Shown here: positions 2,608 to 20,282 of the stretch, piece by piece
How the letters are laid out: each line of letters starts with the position of its first letter
Position numbering within the stretch: the first letter of the stretch is position 1
Origin: a virus
DNA: 20,446 nt
Direction: 5' to 3' (one strand)
IMG/VR virus record: IMGVR_UViG_3300048928_000288
Location: 1-20,446 of that record
Program-made: the position numbers and the translations under genes
Notes under the pieces: generated by a model
Database searches by the model: none
What the model saw: only the letters and a program-made list of their open reading frames with translations
What the model was told of the DNA's origin: nothing

Positions 2608-3282
2608 TTAATAAGAAGATACGTCTATCACGTATATCAGATCGTTAGAATTCGCATACCCCACATTTTCAAGTTGATCACCGCCCGGGCTGGTTGTTTG
2701 AGAAGACGAAACGCGGGTGGTTGCTCCGTTGAAATAAGCATACGTCTGGATCGGCGACTGAAAGGGTCTGGTTGCTCCTCCAGAATGAATGACGCCGACC
2801 ATGAGCCCCGTCATCTGCGGCATTACCGCGTAGTTACCGGTGAGCATAGTATCAATGTTATATCCAAGATCCGCAGGGTTACCCGGCGTCCCAACTGCAA
2901 CGGGGGGATTCATCACTTTGGTTTCATTGGTCAGTATGCACTGGCCCTGCGCGTTATTGATCGCTATTCCCCACGCTGGCTTCGGCTGAGGGATGACGAT
3001 GCCAAATATATAGACGGTAACATTCCCAACACCTCCACCGGCCAATGTTCCTACCGTAAGCGTGTATGCCCCACCGTTATTATCCAGCCGTTCATAAACG
3101 CCGGTTACGTCAGATTTGAAGGCGACAACAAAGGGGCTCGATACTGATACGGCTAAGTTAATCACGCCGCCGCTTCCGCCAAAGTTGTACACATTCTTTG
3201 AAACCAGACTCATCGGCGTCGTATCTGGCGTAGAGAACGGTATCCCGAACTCATCGACCAACATTGCCCCATAATTAGCCAT
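2608..3282 (-). CDS. Tail-tip-associated hypothetical protein (DUF6453-like)
   Basis: 224 residues beginning MANYGAMLVDEFGIPFSTPD and ending LIYVIDVSSY; Gly/Ser/Thr-rich and beta-type, without signal peptide or membrane segment. Proteins with the opening MANYG(x)LxxExG lie directly downstream of the J tail-tip gene in many lambda-like prophages of enterobacteria. I associate this one with the DUF6453 type from memory. It is one base from the preceding gene, so the two are co-transcribed. A virion role at the tail tip is inferred from position only. Confidence 0.65.
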   Translation of the reverse strand: MANYGAMLVDEFGIPFSTPDTTPMSLVSKNVYNFGGSGGVINLAVSVSSPFVVAFKSDVTGVYERLDNNGGAYTLTVGTLAGGGVGNVTVYIFGIVIPQPKPAWGIAINNAQGQCILTNETKVMNPPVAVGTPGNPADLGYNIDTMLTGNYAVMPQMTGLMVGVIHSGGATRPFQSPIQTYAYFNGATTRVSSSQTTSPGGDQLENVGYANSNDLIYVIDVSSY

Positions 3283-3598: not shown

Positions 3599-3785
3599 TC
3601 AGAATACCCCCGTCAGCTCCCCGATCTGCACGCGCAGCACACCATTGCCATCAGCAACGCTGATCGTTGTGTTGGTAGTTTTCATCTTGCCGCCGCTCCC
3701 CGTGCCGTAGTTAACAAAGGTGCCGCCTTTATCCAGCCTCCAGCCGGAGACGTTAACCGTGAAGTTTTCCCCAGCAGTAACGGCA
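3599..3785 (-). pseudogene. C-terminal fragment of a J-like tail-tip (host specificity) protein
   Basis: About 60 residues of a beta-rich C-terminus (AAVTAGENFTVNVSGWRLDK ... GVLRVQIGELTGVF). The ending LRVQIGELTGVF and the position directly before small tail genes and cor fit the C-terminus of a lambda J-type central tail protein, normally over 1,000 residues. Everything upstream is gone: the frame runs straight into the small-terminase gene, with only a chance ATG at 3805. It is a remnant left by a deletion that removed the head and tail genes. Confidence 0.65.
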
Positions 3786-4286
3786 GCAATACCGACGGTA
3801 CTCAACCAGCTCGTTCACGTCGAGCGTTGCCATGTTCCACATCCGAGCAACGATTTGGTCAGCGGTTATAAGCTGACGCTCTGCGATTGCGCGCAACTGT
3901 CGATTAATGGCCTGCGCAATATGATCTTTCCTGATCAGCTGCGGGCCGGTCGAGGAGTCGGAATAGCCAGCGCGCAAAGCAGCCTGAGAGGCGTTCTTAT
4001 CTTTAAGATATTCAATGACAAAGGTGGCTTGCATCGGTGTGAAGCCGTCATCATCAATCAGTTCGTCGATGCTCGACACAACGGCGTCACTGCGCACATT
4101 GCGCATTTTATTCTGCGCAGGTTGCGCAGTTTTTTGCGCATCTGTAGCGGATGGTTTTTTGACGTAGCGGCGCGCCGTGGCGTAGTTGATGCCCTGCGCC
4201 TCACACCAGTCTTTGGGGGATATGTTTGTTATGGCATGATCGGCTAGGAACTTTTTCTGAATGGCCCCCCAATCCGGTTTTGCCAT
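3753..4286 (-). pseudogene. terS: Terminase small subunit, 3'-truncated and fused to the J fragment
   Basis: The small terminase recognises phage DNA for packaging. The ATG at 4286 has GAGGG upstream. Residues about 5-40 form a helix-turn-helix region (SPKDWCEAQGINYATARRYV), followed by a linker. About 80-140 is a Terminase_2-type core (FTPMQATFVIEYL, NASQAALRAGYS). The C-terminus reaches VEYRRYCCRYCWG, a Cys-rich motif normally followed by a longer C-terminal domain. It then ends prematurely within LHG. The sequence after the Cys motif is shared with the J-like frame, so a deletion junction lies at about 3757-3785. About 177 residues remain. The large terminase gene, expected next, is missing. 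Probably non-functional. Confidence 0.8.
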
Positions 4287-4346
4287 GATTTTCCCTCTGG
4301 TCAAAATATTGAATGACCGATAATGTTGATACTTTAGGAGAAAGAT

Positions 4347-4715
4347 ATGAACACAGAAAACGATGTGCCTTGCTTTTGTTCAAGCCACAGCAATAAAACG
4401 ATGATCTGCCCAAAAGAAGTCACATCCCCACAAAATAAATTTAGAAAGCTTATAGAAGTAATCGTTAACAATGGTCCCAAAGGATTCACCTTGGCATGGA
4501 TAGATTGGGACGATGAAGCCGATGGTAATGTAGAGAAAGTCTTGGCGATGCGATGGAATGGTTATATTGAAGATGACGGTTCTTTGAACAAAGGGTACCC
4601 GGTTAATCGGGGTTTTCCTTCATGGTTCATCATTCCGGTCGAGTTGGAGCGACAACTCGTTCCTAATGGCATTTTTCCTTTTAACATTCAACCGAGGATG
4701 CCTCAGCCTGAGTAA
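4347..4715 (+). CDS. Hypothetical protein, first gene of the plus-strand cassette
   Basis: 122 residues (MNTENDVPCFC...PRMPQPE) with a good ribosome site (TAGGAGAAAG). The N-terminus has three Cys and a His (CFCSSHSNKTMIC), possibly metal-binding. The middle is acidic and Trp-rich (AWIDWDDEADG, MRWNGYIEDDG). No signal or membrane segment. It diverges from the terminase gene; the 60-bp gap holds GGTCA and TGACC as an inverted repeat (4299-4318). It is AT-richer than the late genes and opposite in orientation, so it looks like an accessory gene acquired by the prophage. Family not recognised. Confidence 0.6.
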   Translation: MNTENDVPCFCSSHSNKTMICPKEVTSPQNKFRKLIEVIVNNGPKGFTLAWIDWDDEADGNVEKVLAMRWNGYIEDDGSLNKGYPVNRGFPSWFIIPVELERQLVPNGIFPFNIQPRMPQPE

Positions 4716-4771
4716 GTCTAGAGGAGGTATTGCAACTCCTACTAAGGCAGGTATTGTAAAAAATCCCGGGG

Positions 4772-4870
4772 CTAGTCTTTCGCGTTTCCCACCAGAATAG
4801 CCGCTTGCGTGGCGTTCAAATCGATGACGTACTCGCGAAAGAACATCTCTTGTTTGTCGGTGAGCGCCAT
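4772..4870 (-). pseudogene. N-terminal remnant of a second, different terminase small subunit
   Basis: The minus strand reads MALTDKQEMFFREYVIDLNA then TQAAILVGNAKD and a stop. This is the classic opening of Terminase_2-family small subunits (DLNATQAAI normally leads into RAGYS). After about 26 residues the match breaks off and the frame ends. It is distinct from the terS at 3753-4286. The remnant shows that a second packaging gene was cut at the edge of the plus-strand cassette, whose next gene starts 25 bp away on the other strand. Confidence 0.7.
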
Positions 4871-4894
4871 TCTTCCTAATTTATTGGAGTAAAT

Positions 4895-5146
4895 ATGCCT
4901 AAGAATGTTGATGTGACTAAAATTTTCGGCAAGATTAAAATTGTTGAATCCTTCCCTGATTTTAAAGTTAAGGTCGTAGACTCTTTCCCTGACTTAAAAG
5001 TGAAAATTGTCGATTCGTTCCCTAACAGTGAAGGAAAATGGAAGTTAGTTGATGCATTCCCTGATTTCAAAATTAAAATTGTCGATTCGTTCCCAGACTT
5101 TAAAATTAAGTATGTTGACTCATTTCCAGGAGCTACGAAACGCTAA
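4895..5146 (+). CDS. 7(1) septoil-knot-type tandem-repeat protein
   Basis: 83 residues made almost entirely of an 11-residue unit of the form K-(I/V)-K-(I/V)-V-(D/E)-S-F-P-D-(F/L): KIKIVESFPDF, KVKVVDSFPDL, KVKIVDSFPNS, then KWKLVDAFPDF, KIKIVDSFPDF, KIKYVDSFPG. From memory this pattern defines small bacterial proteins named 7(1) septoil knot (Pfam Septknot), predicted to form a deeply knotted beta fold. No signal peptide or membrane segment. The ATG at 4895 follows TTGGAG at normal spacing. It is followed 81 bp later by the DUF6173-like gene in the same direction, suggesting a joint unit. Cellular function unknown. Confidence 0.75.
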   Translation: MPKNVDVTKIFGKIKIVESFPDFKVKVVDSFPDLKVKIVDSFPNSEGKWKLVDAFPDFKIKIVDSFPDFKIKYVDSFPGATKR

Positions 5147-5227
5147 TTTTTATGGCTCTTAATCTTCAAAGAGGATTTGAGTAGAGGTCTTTCCGCTGAG
5201 TTTTCCATTAGAATACAAAGGTTGAAT

Positions 5228-5659
5228 ATGAGTGATAGAGATTTCTTCGGTTTATCTGGAGCTGCATCAGAAAATATGCTGGCAAACCTAGAGAGCTTGA
5301 ATAGACTCCCAAAAGTCCCTCCCATTCCAAAAAATCAAAATCTCGCTGATGAATTCCACAGACGTCTGTTCTGTTGGATTAATGATTTCCATCGCGATTT
5401 AGATGAACAACATGAAGTGGGAGGTCAACTCGCTAGCTTCGGGAAGAACATCGAATTCCATTTCACAAACATCGGTTACTGGAATCCATCCCTGATCTCG
5501 TTTGTTGGCGTTCTTGAGGATGGAAGTCCAGTAGAACTTGTGCAACATGTTAGCCAAATAAATGTTCTTCTTATAAAGAAAAGACGTACACAACCAGATG
5601 AACCAAAGAGGCCGATTGGCTTTGCTTCATGGGATGAATACGACGCATTTAAGAAGTAA
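5228..5659 (+). CDS. DUF6173-like protein
   Basis: 143 residues from ATG 5228 (MSDRDFFGLSG); an upstream TTG at 5177 is less likely. The conserved-looking core is NLADEFHRRLFCWINDFHRD, then VGGQLASFGKNIEFHFTNIG, YWNPSLISFVG and GSPVELVQHVSQINVLL, ending PIGFASWDEYDAF. I recognise this as the DUF6173 type, from memory. Soluble; no membrane segment. It lies directly downstream of the septoil-knot gene and ends 3 bp from the stop of a convergent minus-strand remnant, so the cassette boundary is sharp. Function unknown; its position in a prophage late region suggests a host-benefit or exclusion role. Confidence 0.65.
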   Translation: MSDRDFFGLSGAASENMLANLESLNRLPKVPPIPKNQNLADEFHRRLFCWINDFHRDLDEQHEVGGQLASFGKNIEFHFTNIGYWNPSLISFVGVLEDGSPVELVQHVSQINVLLIKKRRTQPDEPKRPIGFASWDEYDAFKK

Positions 5660-5662
5660 TTA

Positions 5663-5911
5663 CTACAGGGAAGCTTTGTACCAAGCTTGCCAGCGGTAGA
5701 TGTTCAGGCGGAATTCTCTAAGGCATTCCGCCGTTTCTTTATCCACTTGCAGGTCTTCATCTCCTATCTCGTCTATCACAGAAGTCACCGAACTGACTGG
5801 CACGCCGCCTGAGTGCTCCACCTTCTGTTTGTTGGTATATGCGTCGCCGCATTCTTTCGCCGCCTGCTCCATCAGTTGAGCGGTCATCCCGTAGTTCTTT
5901 ACCTTCTCAGT
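5663..5911 (-). pseudogene. C-terminal part of a phage protein cut by an IS remnant
   Basis: About 80 residues, EKVKNYGMTAQLMEQAAKEC ... VEHSGGVPVSSVT ... FRLNIYRWQAWYKASL. Helical at the start, acidic in the middle. The apparent N-terminus (FMGS at 5923) is antisense to the end of an IS3-type transposase gene, so the original 5' part is lost. The C-terminal motif (L)R(E)(F/L)RLN(I/M)YRWQAWYK recurs in a second remnant at 6989-7060. The VEHSGG motif is reminiscent of small-terminase C-termini, but I cannot assign the family. Confidence 0.5.
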
Positions 5912-6020
5912 GAGCGACCCCATGAATCCCTGAACAACTTGACGCCAGAAGAGTACCGGCTGATGGCCGAAAACCCGGAAGTCTCAAAAAGTGCGTGGAA
6001 CTAAAACAGGTGTGCTTACA
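5912..6020 (+). mobile_element. IS3-family insertion sequence remnant (right end)
   Basis: The plus strand reads ERPHESLNNLTPEEYRL, then MAENPEVSKSAWN and a stop at 6004. This matches the C-terminus of the OrfB transposase (DDE integrase core) of IS3-family elements, where RPHxSLxxLTPxEY is typical. The IS should end a few bases after the stop; GTGTGCTTACA (6010-6020) ends in CA as IS3-family right ends do. No other part of the transposase is present. The left boundary is where the frame enters the minus-strand gene fragment (about 5905-5917). Confidence 0.7.
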
Positions 6021-7892: not shown

Positions 7893-8402
7893 CTATCTGT
7901 TAATTTTGCAATGCTTCTGGGCTTCAGCGGCATAGCCCTGAAGGTATTGGATCACTTTGTCGTCTTTGATGGCGCTGGCTCGGAGATCGAGAACAGCCCG
8001 TCCACCAGCGCCAGAGAGTTCGACTTGTGCTGTATCGCCCAGGCTGCAGGTGCCGGAAACGCTGTTCCTGATGAGCTGGCTGGTGGCAAGGTTTGCTGCG
8101 GCGATTCGCACCCGGCGAGTACCAGCAGCAACATCAGCACGCAACTTCTCATTCTTGGCCTGTTCATCTGCCATTTCCTTCGTGTGCTTCGCATCCAGCG
8201 CCTGAAATGCTATCAGGGCCGCTTCGCTACGCTTTTGCTGGTTGGTCAGGGCAATCACTGCCTGATCGCTTTGTTTCTTCAGTGCGGCGGTGTGGGCTTC
8301 ATTAAGTTTGGAAACGTCAGCATCCCAACGTATTCCTTCAACCCACCAGACGAGAGCAGCGCCAGCCATAAAGGCCAGCACAATCGATAAATTGTTATTC
8401 AT
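7893..8402 (-). CDS. Rz: Spanin inner-membrane subunit Rz
   Basis: 169 residues. The N-terminus (MNNNLSIVLAFMAGAALVWW) is an uncleaved signal anchor. It is followed by a long, charged periplasmic coiled-coil region (about 25-110: KLNEAHTAALKKQ, KHTKEMADEQAKN). Together with Rz1 it forms the spanin that fuses inner and outer membranes in the last step of lysis. The start overlaps the endolysin stop by 8 bp, the usual lysis-cassette arrangement, and Rz1 is nested in another frame. The length matches the family (about 150-175), so this gene looks intact. Confidence 0.85.
   Translation of the reverse strand: MNNNLSIVLAFMAGAALVWWVEGIRWDADVSKLNEAHTAALKKQSDQAVIALTNQQKRSEAALIAFQALDAKHTKEMADEQAKNEKLRADVAAGTRRVRIAAANLATSQLIRNSVSGTCSLGDTAQVELSGAGGRAVLDLRASAIKDDKVIQYLQGYAAEAQKHCKINR
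7952..8167 (-). CDS. Rz1: Spanin outer-membrane lipoprotein Rz1, nested in Rz
   Basis: 71 residues from ATG 8167 (MNRPRMRSCVLMLLLVLAGC), preceded by AAGGA at 8 bases. A hydrophobic signal ends in lipobox LAGC; the mature part is Pro/Ser/Ala-rich (SPQQTLPPASSSGTAFPAP), as expected for Rz1. It lies wholly inside Rz in another frame, the standard embedded Rz/Rz1 layout. It is an outer-membrane lipoprotein that pairs with the C-terminus of Rz across the periplasm. An alternative start is the next Met (8152). Confidence 0.8.
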   Translation of the reverse strand: MNRPRMRSCVLMLLLVLAGCESPQQTLPPASSSGTAFPAPAAWAIQHKSNSLALVDGLFSISEPAPSKTTK

Positions 8403-8646
8403 CGAGCCCCCAGCAGGTCAATTCGCTTTCCTGTTCCCGGCGTAGCACCTGACCAAGGCAATTATTTGTCCGAACGTTGCAGTCTTTTCCCCCATCATGC
8501 ACCCAACGCTTGATCTCGCTGCACGCACCGCGTTTATCGCCAGTGTTTAGCTTGCGGTAGAAAGTGGATGTGAAGCATTTACCCGGTCCGATGTTGTAAG
8601 GACAAAACGATGCGATGCCAGCAATCTGAGGCTGGGTAAACGGTAC
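8395..8646 (-). pseudogene. C-terminal half of a GH24-type phage endolysin
   Basis: The readable part is [20 protein letters not shown], then KCFTSTFYRKLNTGDKRGAC, then WVHDGGKDC, NNCLGQVLRREQE and LTCWGLDE. These are hallmarks of the P21/P22-type GH24 lysozyme C-terminus ([18 protein letters not shown], GQVxRRxQE). The N-terminal half, with the signal-anchor and catalytic Glu, is missing. Upstream the DNA becomes a dnaB-type helicase in another frame at about 8638-8650. The holin gene that should precede it is also gone. Only about 83 residues remain, so the protein cannot be active. Confidence 0.8.
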
Positions 8647-9052
8647 CGAGCTCACCAAACCGGTTCTTAGTGACAATGATTTCAGCGAACGGAGCCGCCG
8701 GGCTTTCAGGGTCATAAACGGCTTCGCGGTACAGCATGTAAATTCCGTCTGCGTCCTGCTCTATGCTCCCGCCGTCGCGCAGGTCTGAGTTAACTGGTCG
8801 CTTCTGGCCTTTAGGGCGTTTCTCCACGTCGCGGGATAGTTGGCTGAGGGACATCACAGGCGTCTTCAGGTCTTTAGCCATGCGTTTCATGCCGCCGGAG
8901 ATGTGGGCGATCGCCAAATCGTTTCGTTCAGCACGCGGCTTCTCGATCAGGCCGAGGTAATCGCACAGGATGAGAGAAAGATTTGGGTATTTCCGTTTGT
9001 GTCTCTCCGCAATAGCGCGGATCTGCTCAATAGTCAGTTTCGACGAATCGAC
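8640..9052 (-). pseudogene. Internal fragment of a replicative DnaB-type helicase
   Basis: The minus strand encodes [20 protein letters not shown], then [15 protein letters not shown] (Walker-B-like region of the RecA-type core), then [39 protein letters not shown] and [15 protein letters not shown]. This is the C-terminal ATPase domain of phage DnaB/P22 gp12-like helicases. The N-terminal domain and Walker A are missing. The C-terminus is replaced by fusion to the endolysin at about 8640, where the frame continues meaninglessly to a stop at 8579. Both ends are therefore deletion junctions. Confidence 0.85.
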
Positions 9053-9227: not shown

Positions 9228-9350
9228 GCTGGGCATCATCCCAGCACACAACTGAAAGAGCGCTGGCATGCAAAAACAATCTCGCAGCCAGGGTAGTACC
9301 AAAAGCCAGGATGGACCGGCAAAAACGCGGTAGTGCTCTTTCAGTTGTGT
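9228..9350. repeat. Long inverted repeat with an adjacent small hairpin
   Basis: ACACAACTGAAAGAGC (9246-9261) pairs perfectly with GCTCTTTCAGTTGTGT (9335-9350). The pairing extends three further positions inward with one G-T wobble, giving a stem of about 19 bp around a loop of about 67 nt. Just before it, GCTGGG (9228-9233) and CCCAGC (9240-9245) form a second perfect hairpin. No gene covers the region. Confidence 0.75.
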
Positions 9351-9415
9351 CGTAGCATAAAAGGCAATGCGCGGGGTTCCCAACCCCGGATCTGGTTCGA
9401 ATCCAGCGAGGCAGC
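9346..9415 (+). pseudogene. tRNA-Gly(CCC)-like remnant
   Basis: Recognisable tRNA parts in order: TA (8-9 position), D-stem GCAT/ATGC (9355-9358, 9367-9370) with GG in the loop, anticodon stem CGGGG/CCCCG (9372-9376, 9384-9388) with loop TTCCCAA (anticodon CCC), and T-stem CTGG/CCAG with loop TTCGAAT (9396-9402). The 3' acceptor strand GAGGCAG (9408-9414) has no complement at the 5' side, which is instead one arm of the long inverted repeat. The variable loop is also only about 2 nt. It is probably a broken phage tRNA, possibly a structured RNA in its own right. Confidence 0.45.
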
Positions 9416-18998: not shown

Positions 18999-20282
18999 GT
19001 GGTAGAGATAAAATATCCAACTGGAGTAGAAAGCCATGGAGGGTTTCTGCGGGTTTGGTTCATGTATAAAAAGACGAGAGCAAGGGAAGCTTTGGGCGTG
19101 CCGGACACAGCTAAAAACAGGAAGGTTGCTGGAGAACTAAGGGCTTCAGTTGTATACGCAATTAAGACGGGGAATTTTGACTACCAGAAGCAATTCCCCT
19201 CATCTCCGAATTTACGGAAGTTTGGGATTGCCTCAAGACAGTTCACTATTGGGGAGCTTTATGCGAAGTGGATTGAGTTGAAGGAGGTAGATTTATCGAC
19301 TAATAGCCTGGGCCGGTACAAATCGAGAATGCGAGGAACACTGCTCGCATTAGGTGAGAAGATGATCGCCTCATCAATCAGAACGGAAGACCTTATCAGG
19401 TTGAGAAATTCACTTTTGACCGGTGTCCAGCAACTTGGACGTGGTAAAAAGATGGAGAAAATTGGCAGGTCTGTCAGAACGGTAAACGGACACATGAGTG
19501 ATCTGGGTTCAGTATTGAAGTTCGGTCATGATAATGGATATTTGCCATCTAACCCAATTGTTAACCTGAGGCCTTTGCGCAAGTCAAAAGCTGAGCCTGA
19601 CCCAATAACCAGAGATGAATTTTTGCGGATCATTTCAGTATGCAGTCACCGTCAGGTTGCTAACTTATGGTCACTGGCTGTTTATACTGGCATGCGCCAT
19701 GGTGAGTTATGCGCCCTTGCGTGGGAAGACATTGACCTGATAGCTGGAACTATCAAGGTTAAACGCAACCTGACAACGGTTCATGAATTTACGCCACCAA
19801 AGACCAATGCCGGGACAAGAGAAATCCACCTCATACAGCCAGCCATAGATGTTTTACGTGATCAGGCCGAGATGACCAGGATGATGGGCAAAAACAAAAT
19901 AGAAGTTATTCTGCGTGAGTATGGGAAAAAGGACATCGAAGATTGCACCTTCGTTTTTAACCCACAAGTCAGCGCCATTAACAGCCGCAGCGGAACCTAC
20001 TATTCCGTCTCTTCGATTGGTCAGTCATGGAATACCGCTTTGCGCCGGGCAGGTGTCAGGCATCGCAAAGCATACCAATCGAGGCACACATATGCGTGCT
20101 GGTCACTTTCAGCAGGGGCTAATCCAAACTTCATAGCCAGCCAAATGGGACACACTTCAGCCCAGATGGTTTACTCAGTGTATGGAACCTGGATGAACGA
20201 CAATAACGGAGAGCAGATTGCAATGCTCAACCAAAAATTAGGAGACTTTGCCCCATCCATGCCCCATAAGAAAACAGGCTAG
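18999..20282 (+). CDS. int: Tyrosine-recombinase integrase
   Basis: 427 residues from GTG 18999, preceded by GGAGGT. The N-terminal 1-75 is an arm-binding domain of DUF3596 type (YPTGVESHGGFLRVWFMYKK, REALGVPDTAKNRKVAGELR). It is followed by a core-binding SAM-like domain (about 82-180) and a catalytic domain. Catalytic residues: R233 (TGMRHGEL), K268 (PPKTNAGTREI), R362 in YQSRHTYA (the box-II His is Tyr359, as in related integrases), H385 (MGHTSAQ) and the nucleophile Tyr395 (or Tyr392; VYSVYGTW). It catalyses site-specific integration and excision. The last codons contain one of the arm-type repeats, and the gene ends 37 bp before the attR core. The sequence is complete. Confidence 0.93.
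   Translation: MVEIKYPTGVESHGGFLRVWFMYKKTRAREALGVPDTAKNRKVAGELRASVVYAIKTGNFDYQKQFPSSPNLRKFGIASRQFTIGELYAKWIELKEVDLSTNSLGRYKSRMRGTLLALGEKMIASSIRTEDLIRLRNSLLTGVQQLGRGKKMEKIGRSVRTVNGHMSDLGSVLKFGHDNGYLPSNPIVNLRPLRKSKAEPDPITRDEFLRIISVCSHRQVANLWSLAVYTGMRHGELCALAWEDIDLIAGTIKVKRNLTTVHEFTPPKTNAGTREIHLIQPAIDVLRDQAEMTRMMGKNKIEVILREYGKKDIEDCTFVFNPQVSAINSRSGTYYSVSSIGQSWNTALRRAGVRHRKAYQSRHTYACWSLSAGANPNFIASQMGHTSAQMVYSVYGTWMNDNNGEQIAMLNQKLGDFAPSMPHKKTG
20247..20267. repeat. Putative integrase arm-type sites, right arm, inside int
   Basis: A 21-bp block identical to 283-303, with TGCCCCAT at 20249-20256 and 20260-20267. It overlaps the int codons for FAPSMPH, so the same DNA both encodes the integrase end and probably binds it. 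It lies 52 bp inside the attR core. Confidence 0.6.

What the first reader, a model, noticed from the sequence alone, without database searches (positions are those of the whole stretch)
4347..5659. Plus-strand cassette with a 7(1) septoil-knot repeat protein and a DUF6173-like protein inside the packaging region
The 83-residue protein consists of six or seven copies of an 11-residue (I/V)KIVDSFPDFK unit, a knotted-fold family with no known role. It is paired with a DUF6173-like gene and preceded by a Cys-rich unknown gene. All run against the late operon and are wedged between two different small-terminase genes. This is a good candidate for an undescribed accessory (defence, exclusion or host-fitness) module.
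Basis: partly seen in the sequence, partly recalled or inferred. Interest (0 to 1): 0.75.

Follow-up and report, generated by a model that had tools for sequence, protein, structure and literature searches.

The report
Prophage-borne knotted-protein and DUF6173 morons
A damaged bacterial virus integrated in a bacterial genome carries, in a cargo slot beside its DNA-packaging gene, a gene for a relative of the most tangled protein knot known plus an unrelated DUF6173 gene; each turns up separately in other viruses, so they look like independent hitch-hiker genes, perhaps protective, rather than one two-gene system.

Summary
The observation largely holds. The 83-aa repeat protein (4895-5146 +) is homologous to the crystallised 7_1-knot protein Q9PR55/UU089.1 (E 6.3e-11; model aligns at Z 8.2, 2.1 A, 46% identity); 5228-5659 is DUF6173 (E 4e-25). 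Corrections: the first gene has 3 Cys in 122 residues and no known family; one terminase is truncated, and the second is a ~100-bp remnant lying between the first gene and the repeat gene.

The 'paired module' reading fails. Septknot and DUF6173 sit together only in this phage and a sibling contig: 1 of 36 DUF6173 viral loci, none of 96 other septknot loci, 0 of 20 septknot genomes. Instead, each alone occupies the same slot in other prophages, its start codon 23-27 nt from the divergent small-terminase start. In 24 of 36 DUF6173 loci all identified packaging or lysis genes run opposite. They are independent morons under purifying selection.

Septknot is a large bacterial family (449 relatives in one scan; most of 97 loci examined look secreted). 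The window's copy belongs to a leaderless, mobile group; its two nearest relatives (Bacteroidota) lie beside defence-type genes, and another leaderless copy directly follows a Thoeris-like pair. Anti-phage action in the lysogen, as for the moron Tab, is the leading but unproven mechanism.

The parts
4895..5146 (+). Septknot gene: 83-aa leaderless member of the 7_1-knot family (phrog_6462)
   Evidence: purifying selection
5228..5659 (+). DUF6173 gene, 143 aa from ATG 5228 (an upstream TTG at 5177 would give 160 aa)
   Evidence: PF19670 E 4e-25, phrog_3306 E 1.9e-20; relatives; selection
4347..4715 (+). Orphan gene, 122 aa, 3 Cys; seen only here and in the sibling contig
   Evidence: no family; only L004 = window, and L005/L006/L035 = sibling contig, among the loci held then
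4775..4870 (-). 5' remnant of a second terS; its start codon is 24 nt from the septknot start codon
   Evidence: 86-90% identical over 87-98 bp to the terS starts of L029, L132, L016, L019; translation; alignment and gaps
3753..4304 (-). Small terminase (phrog_51 type), truncated relative to the 338-aa sibling copy in L035
5663..5923 (-). Small phage ORF closing the slot on the lysis side; a homologous stretch also lies next to the septknot gene in the prophage L135/L159
   Evidence: phrog_546/phrog_5672; window 5672-5761 matches L135 at 74%
7893..8402 (-). Rz-type lysis gene, landmark on the other side of the slot
   Evidence: PF03245 E 8.7e-16, phrog_2466 E 1.8e-39

Best explanation
Two unrelated moron (cargo) genes, plus an orphan, stacked in a recurrent slot between the lysis genes and small terminase of an enterobacterial (lambdoid/P22-like) prophage. 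Shown: homology, opposite orientation, the same slot used by either gene alone in other prophages, separate mobility, purifying selection. Inferred: because only 23-27 nt separate the terS start codon from the cargo start codon, the cargo promoter probably lies inside the terS 5' coding end, which would explain why a terS remnant travelled with this cargo; the genes would then be transcribed from the silent prophage. Most likely mechanism (inferred): the cytoplasmic septknot, and separately DUF6173, act in the lysogen as single-gene anti-phage or exclusion proteins in the manner of Tab, a small minus-strand moron in a packaging region; the knotted protein would serve as a rigid, hard-to-unfold binding scaffold. 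Rough weights: independent morons about 0.85; anti-phage action given that about 0.5.
For: Start codons of septknot (window 24, L052 27) and of DUF6173 (L029 25, L016 23, L019 26, L186 26) lie 23-27 nt from the divergent terS start. In 24 of 36 DUF6173 viral loci every identified terS/terL/lysis landmark is on the opposite strand; 5 of 36 lie 13 nt from an integrase; 7 had no landmark. Similar opposite-strand placing in an E. coli prophage, in the regulatory region of a Clostridioides phage and in a Paenibacillus plasmid record near terS and an integrase. Septknot in other prophages, opposite to the nearest late genes: L052 beside terS; L159 between endolysin and terS-terL (same place as L135); L198, P2-like by eye, between gpD-like and repressor-like genes. 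Purifying selection: septknot window/L052 pN 0.127, pS 0.885; DUF6173 window/L008 pN 0.191, pS 0.838. Defence lean: the window septknot groups with L053 and L144 (98/80); L053 lies between HEC-01A/B genes and ThsB-TIR + SLATT genes, L144 beside an AAA_15/OLD-like ATPase; the leaderless L074 directly follows ThsB-TIR and ThsA-Macro genes. Tab: 83 aa, minus strand, own promoter, gives resistance (PMC10884400, passages).
Against: No function was tested. No PADLOC match for any of the three genes. Most of the 97 septknot loci examined look secreted, and several chromosomal ones lie beside metabolic genes. The defence-neighbour signal is weak: 3 of 9 non-phage leaderless loci, while the control (126 neighbours at 28 leadered loci) also gave PADLOC matches (33 families at E<=1e-15), so no enrichment is shown. 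Promoter-like sites in 4200-5950 are no more than chance (3 found, 3.0 expected) and none lies in the terS remnant. In Leptospira-type prophages septknot is co-directional inside the tail operon. Tab is not homologous to either protein by BLASTP.
Confidence: 0.45

Rival explanations
1. Host-fitness gene unrelated to phage defence: a stable binding or stress protein captured from a chromosomal, mostly secreted family.
For: Most of the 97 septknots examined have an N-terminal hydrophobic leader (by eye). Chromosomal copies lie near a urtA-like gene in 12 Pseudomonas loci and near urocanate hydratase, succinylarginine dihydrolase and agmatine deiminase genes as named by eye.
Against: The window copy is leaderless and its closest kin are mobile or beside defence-type genes.
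Confidence: 0.28
2. Counter-defence or anti-host protein used by the phage during infection, for example blocking a host defence protein.
For: In L159 the septknot gene lies near a gene that looks like Acb2 by eye; leaderless relatives lie beside defence-type genes.
Against: Orientation against the late genes fits lysogen rather than late lytic expression; L053 and L074 are bacterial contigs without phage genes noticed beside the septknot.
Confidence: 0.12
3. Septknot and DUF6173 form a two-gene system.
For: Adjacent and co-directional here and in the sibling contig.
Against: Linked in 1 of 36 DUF6173 viral loci, the sibling contig; none of 96 other septknot loci, with flanks of up to 7 kb, often cut by contig ends; 0 of 20 septknot genomes; in 295 genomes of one family sample 7 had septknot and 1 had DUF6173, none both.
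Confidence: 0.07
4. Virion or tail component, as the Leptospira-type tail-operon position might suggest.
For: In Leptospira-type prophages the gene lies among baseplate genes, co-directional, overlapping the next by 4 nt.
Against: Those copies carry leader peptides; in L052, L159, L198 and L038, as in the window, the gene runs opposite to the phage structural or packaging genes nearest it.
Confidence: 0.05
5. Decaying remnants without function in a defective prophage.
For: The window has a truncated terS and gene fragments.
Against: The three cargo proteins are 100% identical in window and sibling contig, and for septknot and DUF6173 pN is far below pS against distant relatives (the orphan has no distant relative to test).
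Confidence: 0.03

Closest known systems
Q9PR55 / UU089.1 (PDB 8iwa, 8iwb, 8jrm), the 7_1-knot protein of Ureaplasma urealyticum
   Same: Homologous (phmmer E 6.3e-11); predicted fold superposes, Z 8.2, 46% identity.
   Different: Prophage-borne; closely related to mobile bacterial copies. Whether the window protein is really 7_1 and not 5_1 knotted was not computed; a homologue with a predicted 5_1 knot is described in PMC9278004 (passages).
PF19670 / DUF6173
   Same: Over the family cut-off; 14-row alignment with many invariant columns.
   Different: Nothing seen; an ordinary member. No function found: 'DUF6173' returned 0 papers.
Tab, prophage JBD26 moron (PMC10884400)
   Same: Single small gene (83 aa, as here), opposite strand, in the terminase region of a prophage (passages; gene of that size and strand seen).
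   Different: No sequence similarity. Tab lies between terS and terL and has a late-operon partner (anti-Tab), which was not sought here.
Lambdoid/P22-type morons between lysis and packaging genes (class known from recall)
   Same: Position, orientation, cargo swapping.
   Different: No paper on these cargo genes in phages was found by the term searches; an own promoter is not demonstrated.

Membership tests
7_1-knot (septknot) family, phrog_6462 | Sequence homology to Q9PR55 and to the family profile | tested here: met
7_1-knot (septknot) family, phrog_6462 | Same fold | tested here: met
   Z 8.2, rmsd 2.1 over 66 residues; Foldseek E 2.8e-6. Against it: Foldseek's own superpositions are poor, TMq 0.32-0.59 with rmsd 3.3-10.1.
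7_1-knot (septknot) family, phrog_6462 | Backbone actually forms a 7_1 knot | not tested
   Model coordinates were not found in the Python box.
DUF6173 (PF19670) | Score over the Pfam gathering cut-off | tested here: met
   88.6 bits vs 27
Phage moron | Extra gene present or absent at a given site between conserved phage genes | tested here: met
   septknot alone, DUF6173 alone or both at the terS start
Phage moron | Own promoter and terminator, expressed from the prophage | tested here: inconclusive
   consensus scan at chance level; no transcript data
Phage moron | Opposite or independent transcription relative to the late operon | tested here: met
   strand; 24 of 36 DUF6173 loci
Tab-type defence | Sequence homology to Tab | tested here: not met
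   no alignment with E<=100 for septknot; 13.5 bits, E 0.78 for DUF6173
Tab-type defence | Gives phage resistance when expressed from the host | not testable with these tools
   needs a plating assay
Known anti-phage system component (PADLOC) | Match to a PADLOC model | tested here: not met
   no match at E<=1 for the three cargo genes
Septknot + DUF6173 two-gene module | Recurrent linkage in unrelated genomes | tested here: not met

The most novel reading that the evidence does not exclude
Leaderless septknots are a mobile class of cytoplasmic anti-phage or defence-accessory proteins, carried by prophages and beside bacterial defence genes such as Thoeris-like and HEC-01-like pairs. The most complex known protein knot would then be used for its resistance to unfolding, as an indestructible binder or decoy in phage-bacterium conflict.
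Probability: 0.25. Interest if true: 0.85.

Novelty: new variant of a known kind. Interest (0 to 1): 0.55.

Why it matters
I found no stated role for the 7_1 knot. The family turns out to be large and spread over many bacterial phyla, mostly apparently secreted in the loci examined, with leaderless copies that travel on prophages and, on the tree, across phyla. That gives short, clonable genes in a defined setting in which the purpose of a complex knot can be tested. It also gives a concrete cargo slot (about 25 nt from the terS start) in which to look for further unknown morons.

Tried and rejected
Two-gene module: rejected on linkage. Direct Pfam/NCBIfam naming of the repeat protein: no model over its cut-off. 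tblastn of septknot in annotated phages: none at E<=0.01 for the window protein and none at E<=1 for a Burkholderia relative; BLAST's low-complexity filter was on. Septknot DNA in 5426 E. coli genomes: none, while DUF6173 is in 33 of 5426. Fold search for DUF6173: best E 0.02, none at or under 0.001; no functional hint. Its model has mean pLDDT 78.5 with residues 1-35 under 50. Promoter/terminator scan: chance level. Rfam on 3700-6000: none. The tool warned that the 0-of-20 DUF6173 search had no positive in its own control genomes; the same family search does ring in the window record and in one genome. Defence-neighbour enrichment: attempted with a control and not established. For the control, 43 of 71 leadered genome loci were kept after removing near-duplicates, the first 32 of a random order gave 150 proteins, and 28 of these loci (126 proteins) were scanned; four loci (23 proteins) were dropped for the residue limit and one neighbour that was itself a septknot was left out. 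On the leaderless side 10 hand-picked neighbours were scanned one by one and 39 others pooled, so the two sides were not treated identically. 'Leaderless' was judged by eye from the start codon nearest the domain; no signal-peptide program was run, and for L074 and L088 upstream starts exist. Genes were called by a simple longest-frame script, weak in GC-rich DNA. The tree rests on 79 columns, many forks are open and its bootstrap had not settled.

Full report
The window is one complete IMG/VR record of 20,446 bp: a defective enterobacterial-type prophage with tail-fibre genes at the left, an integrase (18999-20282) at the right and fragments of other genes between. The plus-strand cassette is real. 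The 83-aa protein at 4895-5146 has an 11-residue periodicity far beyond chance (32 lag-11 identities, maximum 18 in 100,000 shuffles). It is homologous to Q9PR55, the 89-residue Ureaplasma protein with a crystallised 7_1 knot (phmmer E 6.3e-11; phrog_6462 E 9.2e-26). A model from a 75-row alignment reaches pLDDT 92 and aligns to 8iwa at Z 8.2, rmsd 2.1 over 66 residues, although Foldseek's own superpositions were poor (TMq 0.32-0.59). I did not compute the knot itself; a related protein with a predicted 5_1 knot is described in PMC9278004 (passages). DUF6173 at 5228-5659 is a clear family member (88.6 bits, cut-off 27). The first gene (4347-4715) matches nothing, has 3 Cys, and was seen only here and in a sibling contig.

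Surroundings. The left terminase gene (3753-4304) ends where the sibling contig L035 carries on to 338 aa, followed there by terL- and portal-like genes. A second terS survives only as its first 30 or so codons (4775-4870), and the septknot gene starts 24 nt from that start codon. This remnant is 86-90% identical to the terS start of other prophages (L029, L132, L016, L019), in which the next gene, divergent, is DUF6173. In the Enterobacter contig L052 the next gene is septknot and no DUF6173 was found. The start codons of both kinds of cargo lie 23-27 nt from the terS start in all six phages compared: septknot 24 (window) and 27 (L052, GTG), DUF6173 25 (L029), 23 (L016), 26 (L019), 26 (L186). 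So septknot and DUF6173 use the same slot. With so little room, their promoter probably sits inside the terS 5' end; that is inference, and a consensus scan gave no support.

Linkage. Of 36 viral loci found with a DUF6173 alignment, one has septknot beside it, and that is the sibling contig L164. Of 97 septknot loci examined (17 viral, 80 genomic), only the sibling contig L035 has DUF6173; flanks are up to 6-7 kb and often cut by contig ends. Two loci, L091 and L104, hold two septknots each. Twenty septknot genomes searched whole had no DUF6173 (0 of 20; the same search does find it in the window record). In 295 genomes of one family sample, 7 had septknot and 1 had DUF6173, with no overlap. 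The module is not supported.

DUF6173 as cargo. In 24 of 36 loci all identified terS, terL or lysis landmarks are on the opposite strand (in L177 and L197 my gene caller missed the DUF6173 frame, whose strand comes from tblastn); in 5 it lies 13 nt from an integrase; 7 had no landmark. It is opposite to terS and an integrase in a Paenibacillus plasmid record, in the regulatory region of a Clostridioides phage, on small Acinetobacter plasmids without phage genes, in chromosome-like surroundings in Ruegeria, and in 33 of 5426 E. coli genomes.

Septknot family. One scan of the species-genome collection gave 449 relatives among 480 candidate stretches; the best 80 were kept, from Pseudomonadota, Bacteroidota, Planctomycetota, Verrucomicrobiota, Myxococcota, Spirochaetota, Cyanobacteriota and Acidobacteriota (record titles). 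Sampled frequencies, seed genomes included: 11 of 395 (phylum of G002), 6 of 398 (phylum of G013), 5 of 296 and 19 of 149 (two orders). Most of the 97 loci examined have a hydrophobic N-terminus that reads as a signal peptide (by eye). Twelve rows in the tree were judged leaderless, the window among them. The window groups with L053 and L144, two Bacteroidota copies (98/80), and is 84% identical to L053, which suggests transfer between phyla. The leaderless label needs 6 changes on the tree against a mean of 11.5 for shuffled labels, so it is clustered but not one clade. Further Cys-bearing leaderless copies occur in Bacteroidales (L208, L210, L211, L213) and were not in the tree.

What stands beside leaderless copies. 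Prophages: window, L052, L198 (P2-like by eye: gpD-like, tape measure, Ogr-like, repressor-like genes). L053: HEC-01A/HEC-01B on one side, ThsB-TIR and SLATT genes on the other, with a dual-specificity phosphatase directly upstream. L074: ThsB-TIR and ThsA-Macro directly upstream on the same strand. L144: an AAA_15/OLD-like ATPase. L107: two scanned neighbours had no match; further off lie ParA/ParB-like and helicase-like genes, plasmid-like by eye. The pooled other neighbours of all nine non-phage leaderless loci (39 proteins, five of the loci being L088, L098, L108, L114 and L128) gave only mad2 in two members and mad3 in one, loci not resolved. Three of nine is suggestive only; the control of 28 leadered loci also held PADLOC matches (33 families at E<=1e-15, mostly kinase-like PD-T4-6 models hit by single members, also mad3, mad6, mad8, DolB and others).

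Mechanism. Shown: homology, shared slot, opposite orientation, separate mobility, purifying selection (septknot window/L052 pN 0.127 vs pS 0.885; DUF6173 window/L008 0.191 vs 0.838; L107/L198 dN 0.108, dS 1.433). Inferred: expression from the prophage and a protective role. The best analogue is Tab, an 83-aa minus-strand moron with its own promoter between terS and terL of phage JBD26, which blocks tail assembly of incoming phages (PMC10884400, passages; a gene of that size and strand seen). Neither window protein is homologous to it. That Q9PR55 resists urea and AAA+ unfolding is my recall; the paper was not held.

Against my reading: leadered septknots are the majority of those examined, several beside metabolic genes; Leptospira-type prophages carry leadered copies inside the tail operon, co-directional; no promoter was found; no defence model matches the cargo. 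Literature: 'DUF6173' 0 papers, 'septoil knot' 1 unrelated paper, 'Q9PR55' 3 papers, of which I read passages (PMC9278004, PMC11223836, PMC13352647); none of these passages gives a function or a phage link. PMC12724215 was read in passages. The library holds only open-licence papers.

Verdict: a real, correctly spotted accessory cassette, but two independent morons rather than a module; the interesting part is that the 7_1 knot belongs to a widespread family with mobile, leaderless, phage-carried members.

Noticed in passing
window 3753-4304 and 3599-3805: terS is truncated and runs straight into tail-fibre-like sequence; terL-, portal- and other head-like genes present in the sibling contig L035 are missing beside it: a large deletion or an assembly join.
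   Followed up: partly
window 8398-8917: A DnaB-like helicase fragment directly abuts an endolysin fragment, a second apparent deletion junction.
   Followed up: no
L030, L031, L040-L051: Two Leptospira-type prophage families carry a leadered septknot gene inside the tail/baseplate operon, in different positions (between W- and J-like genes, or before a D-like gene; names by eye); L038 has one among tail genes on the opposite strand.
   Followed up: partly
L054 and 11 other Pseudomonas loci: Leadered septknot lies just upstream of a urea-transporter urtA-like gene; other chromosomal copies lie near urocanate hydratase, succinylarginine dihydrolase or agmatine deiminase genes (named by eye): a possible nitrogen-catabolism theme.
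   Followed up: partly
L053:4125-4571: A dual-specificity phosphatase gene directly upstream of a leaderless septknot, in a stretch with HEC-01-like and ThsB/SLATT genes.
   Followed up: no
L074:5357-7231: ThsB-TIR, ThsA-Macro and septknot in a row on one strand: possible third gene of a type II Thoeris-like locus.
   Followed up: partly
L159:9909-11338: A prophage with leadered septknot and a gene resembling the Acb2 anti-CBASS sponge (by eye) in the same lysis-terminase interval.
   Followed up: no
L214:1027-1713: One open frame with two septknot domains in tandem.
   Followed up: no
window 9346-9415 +: tRNA-Gly(ccc) gene inside the prophage record.
   Followed up: no
window 2608-3282 -: Match to phrog_425, listed as moron, membrane associated protein.
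   Followed up: no
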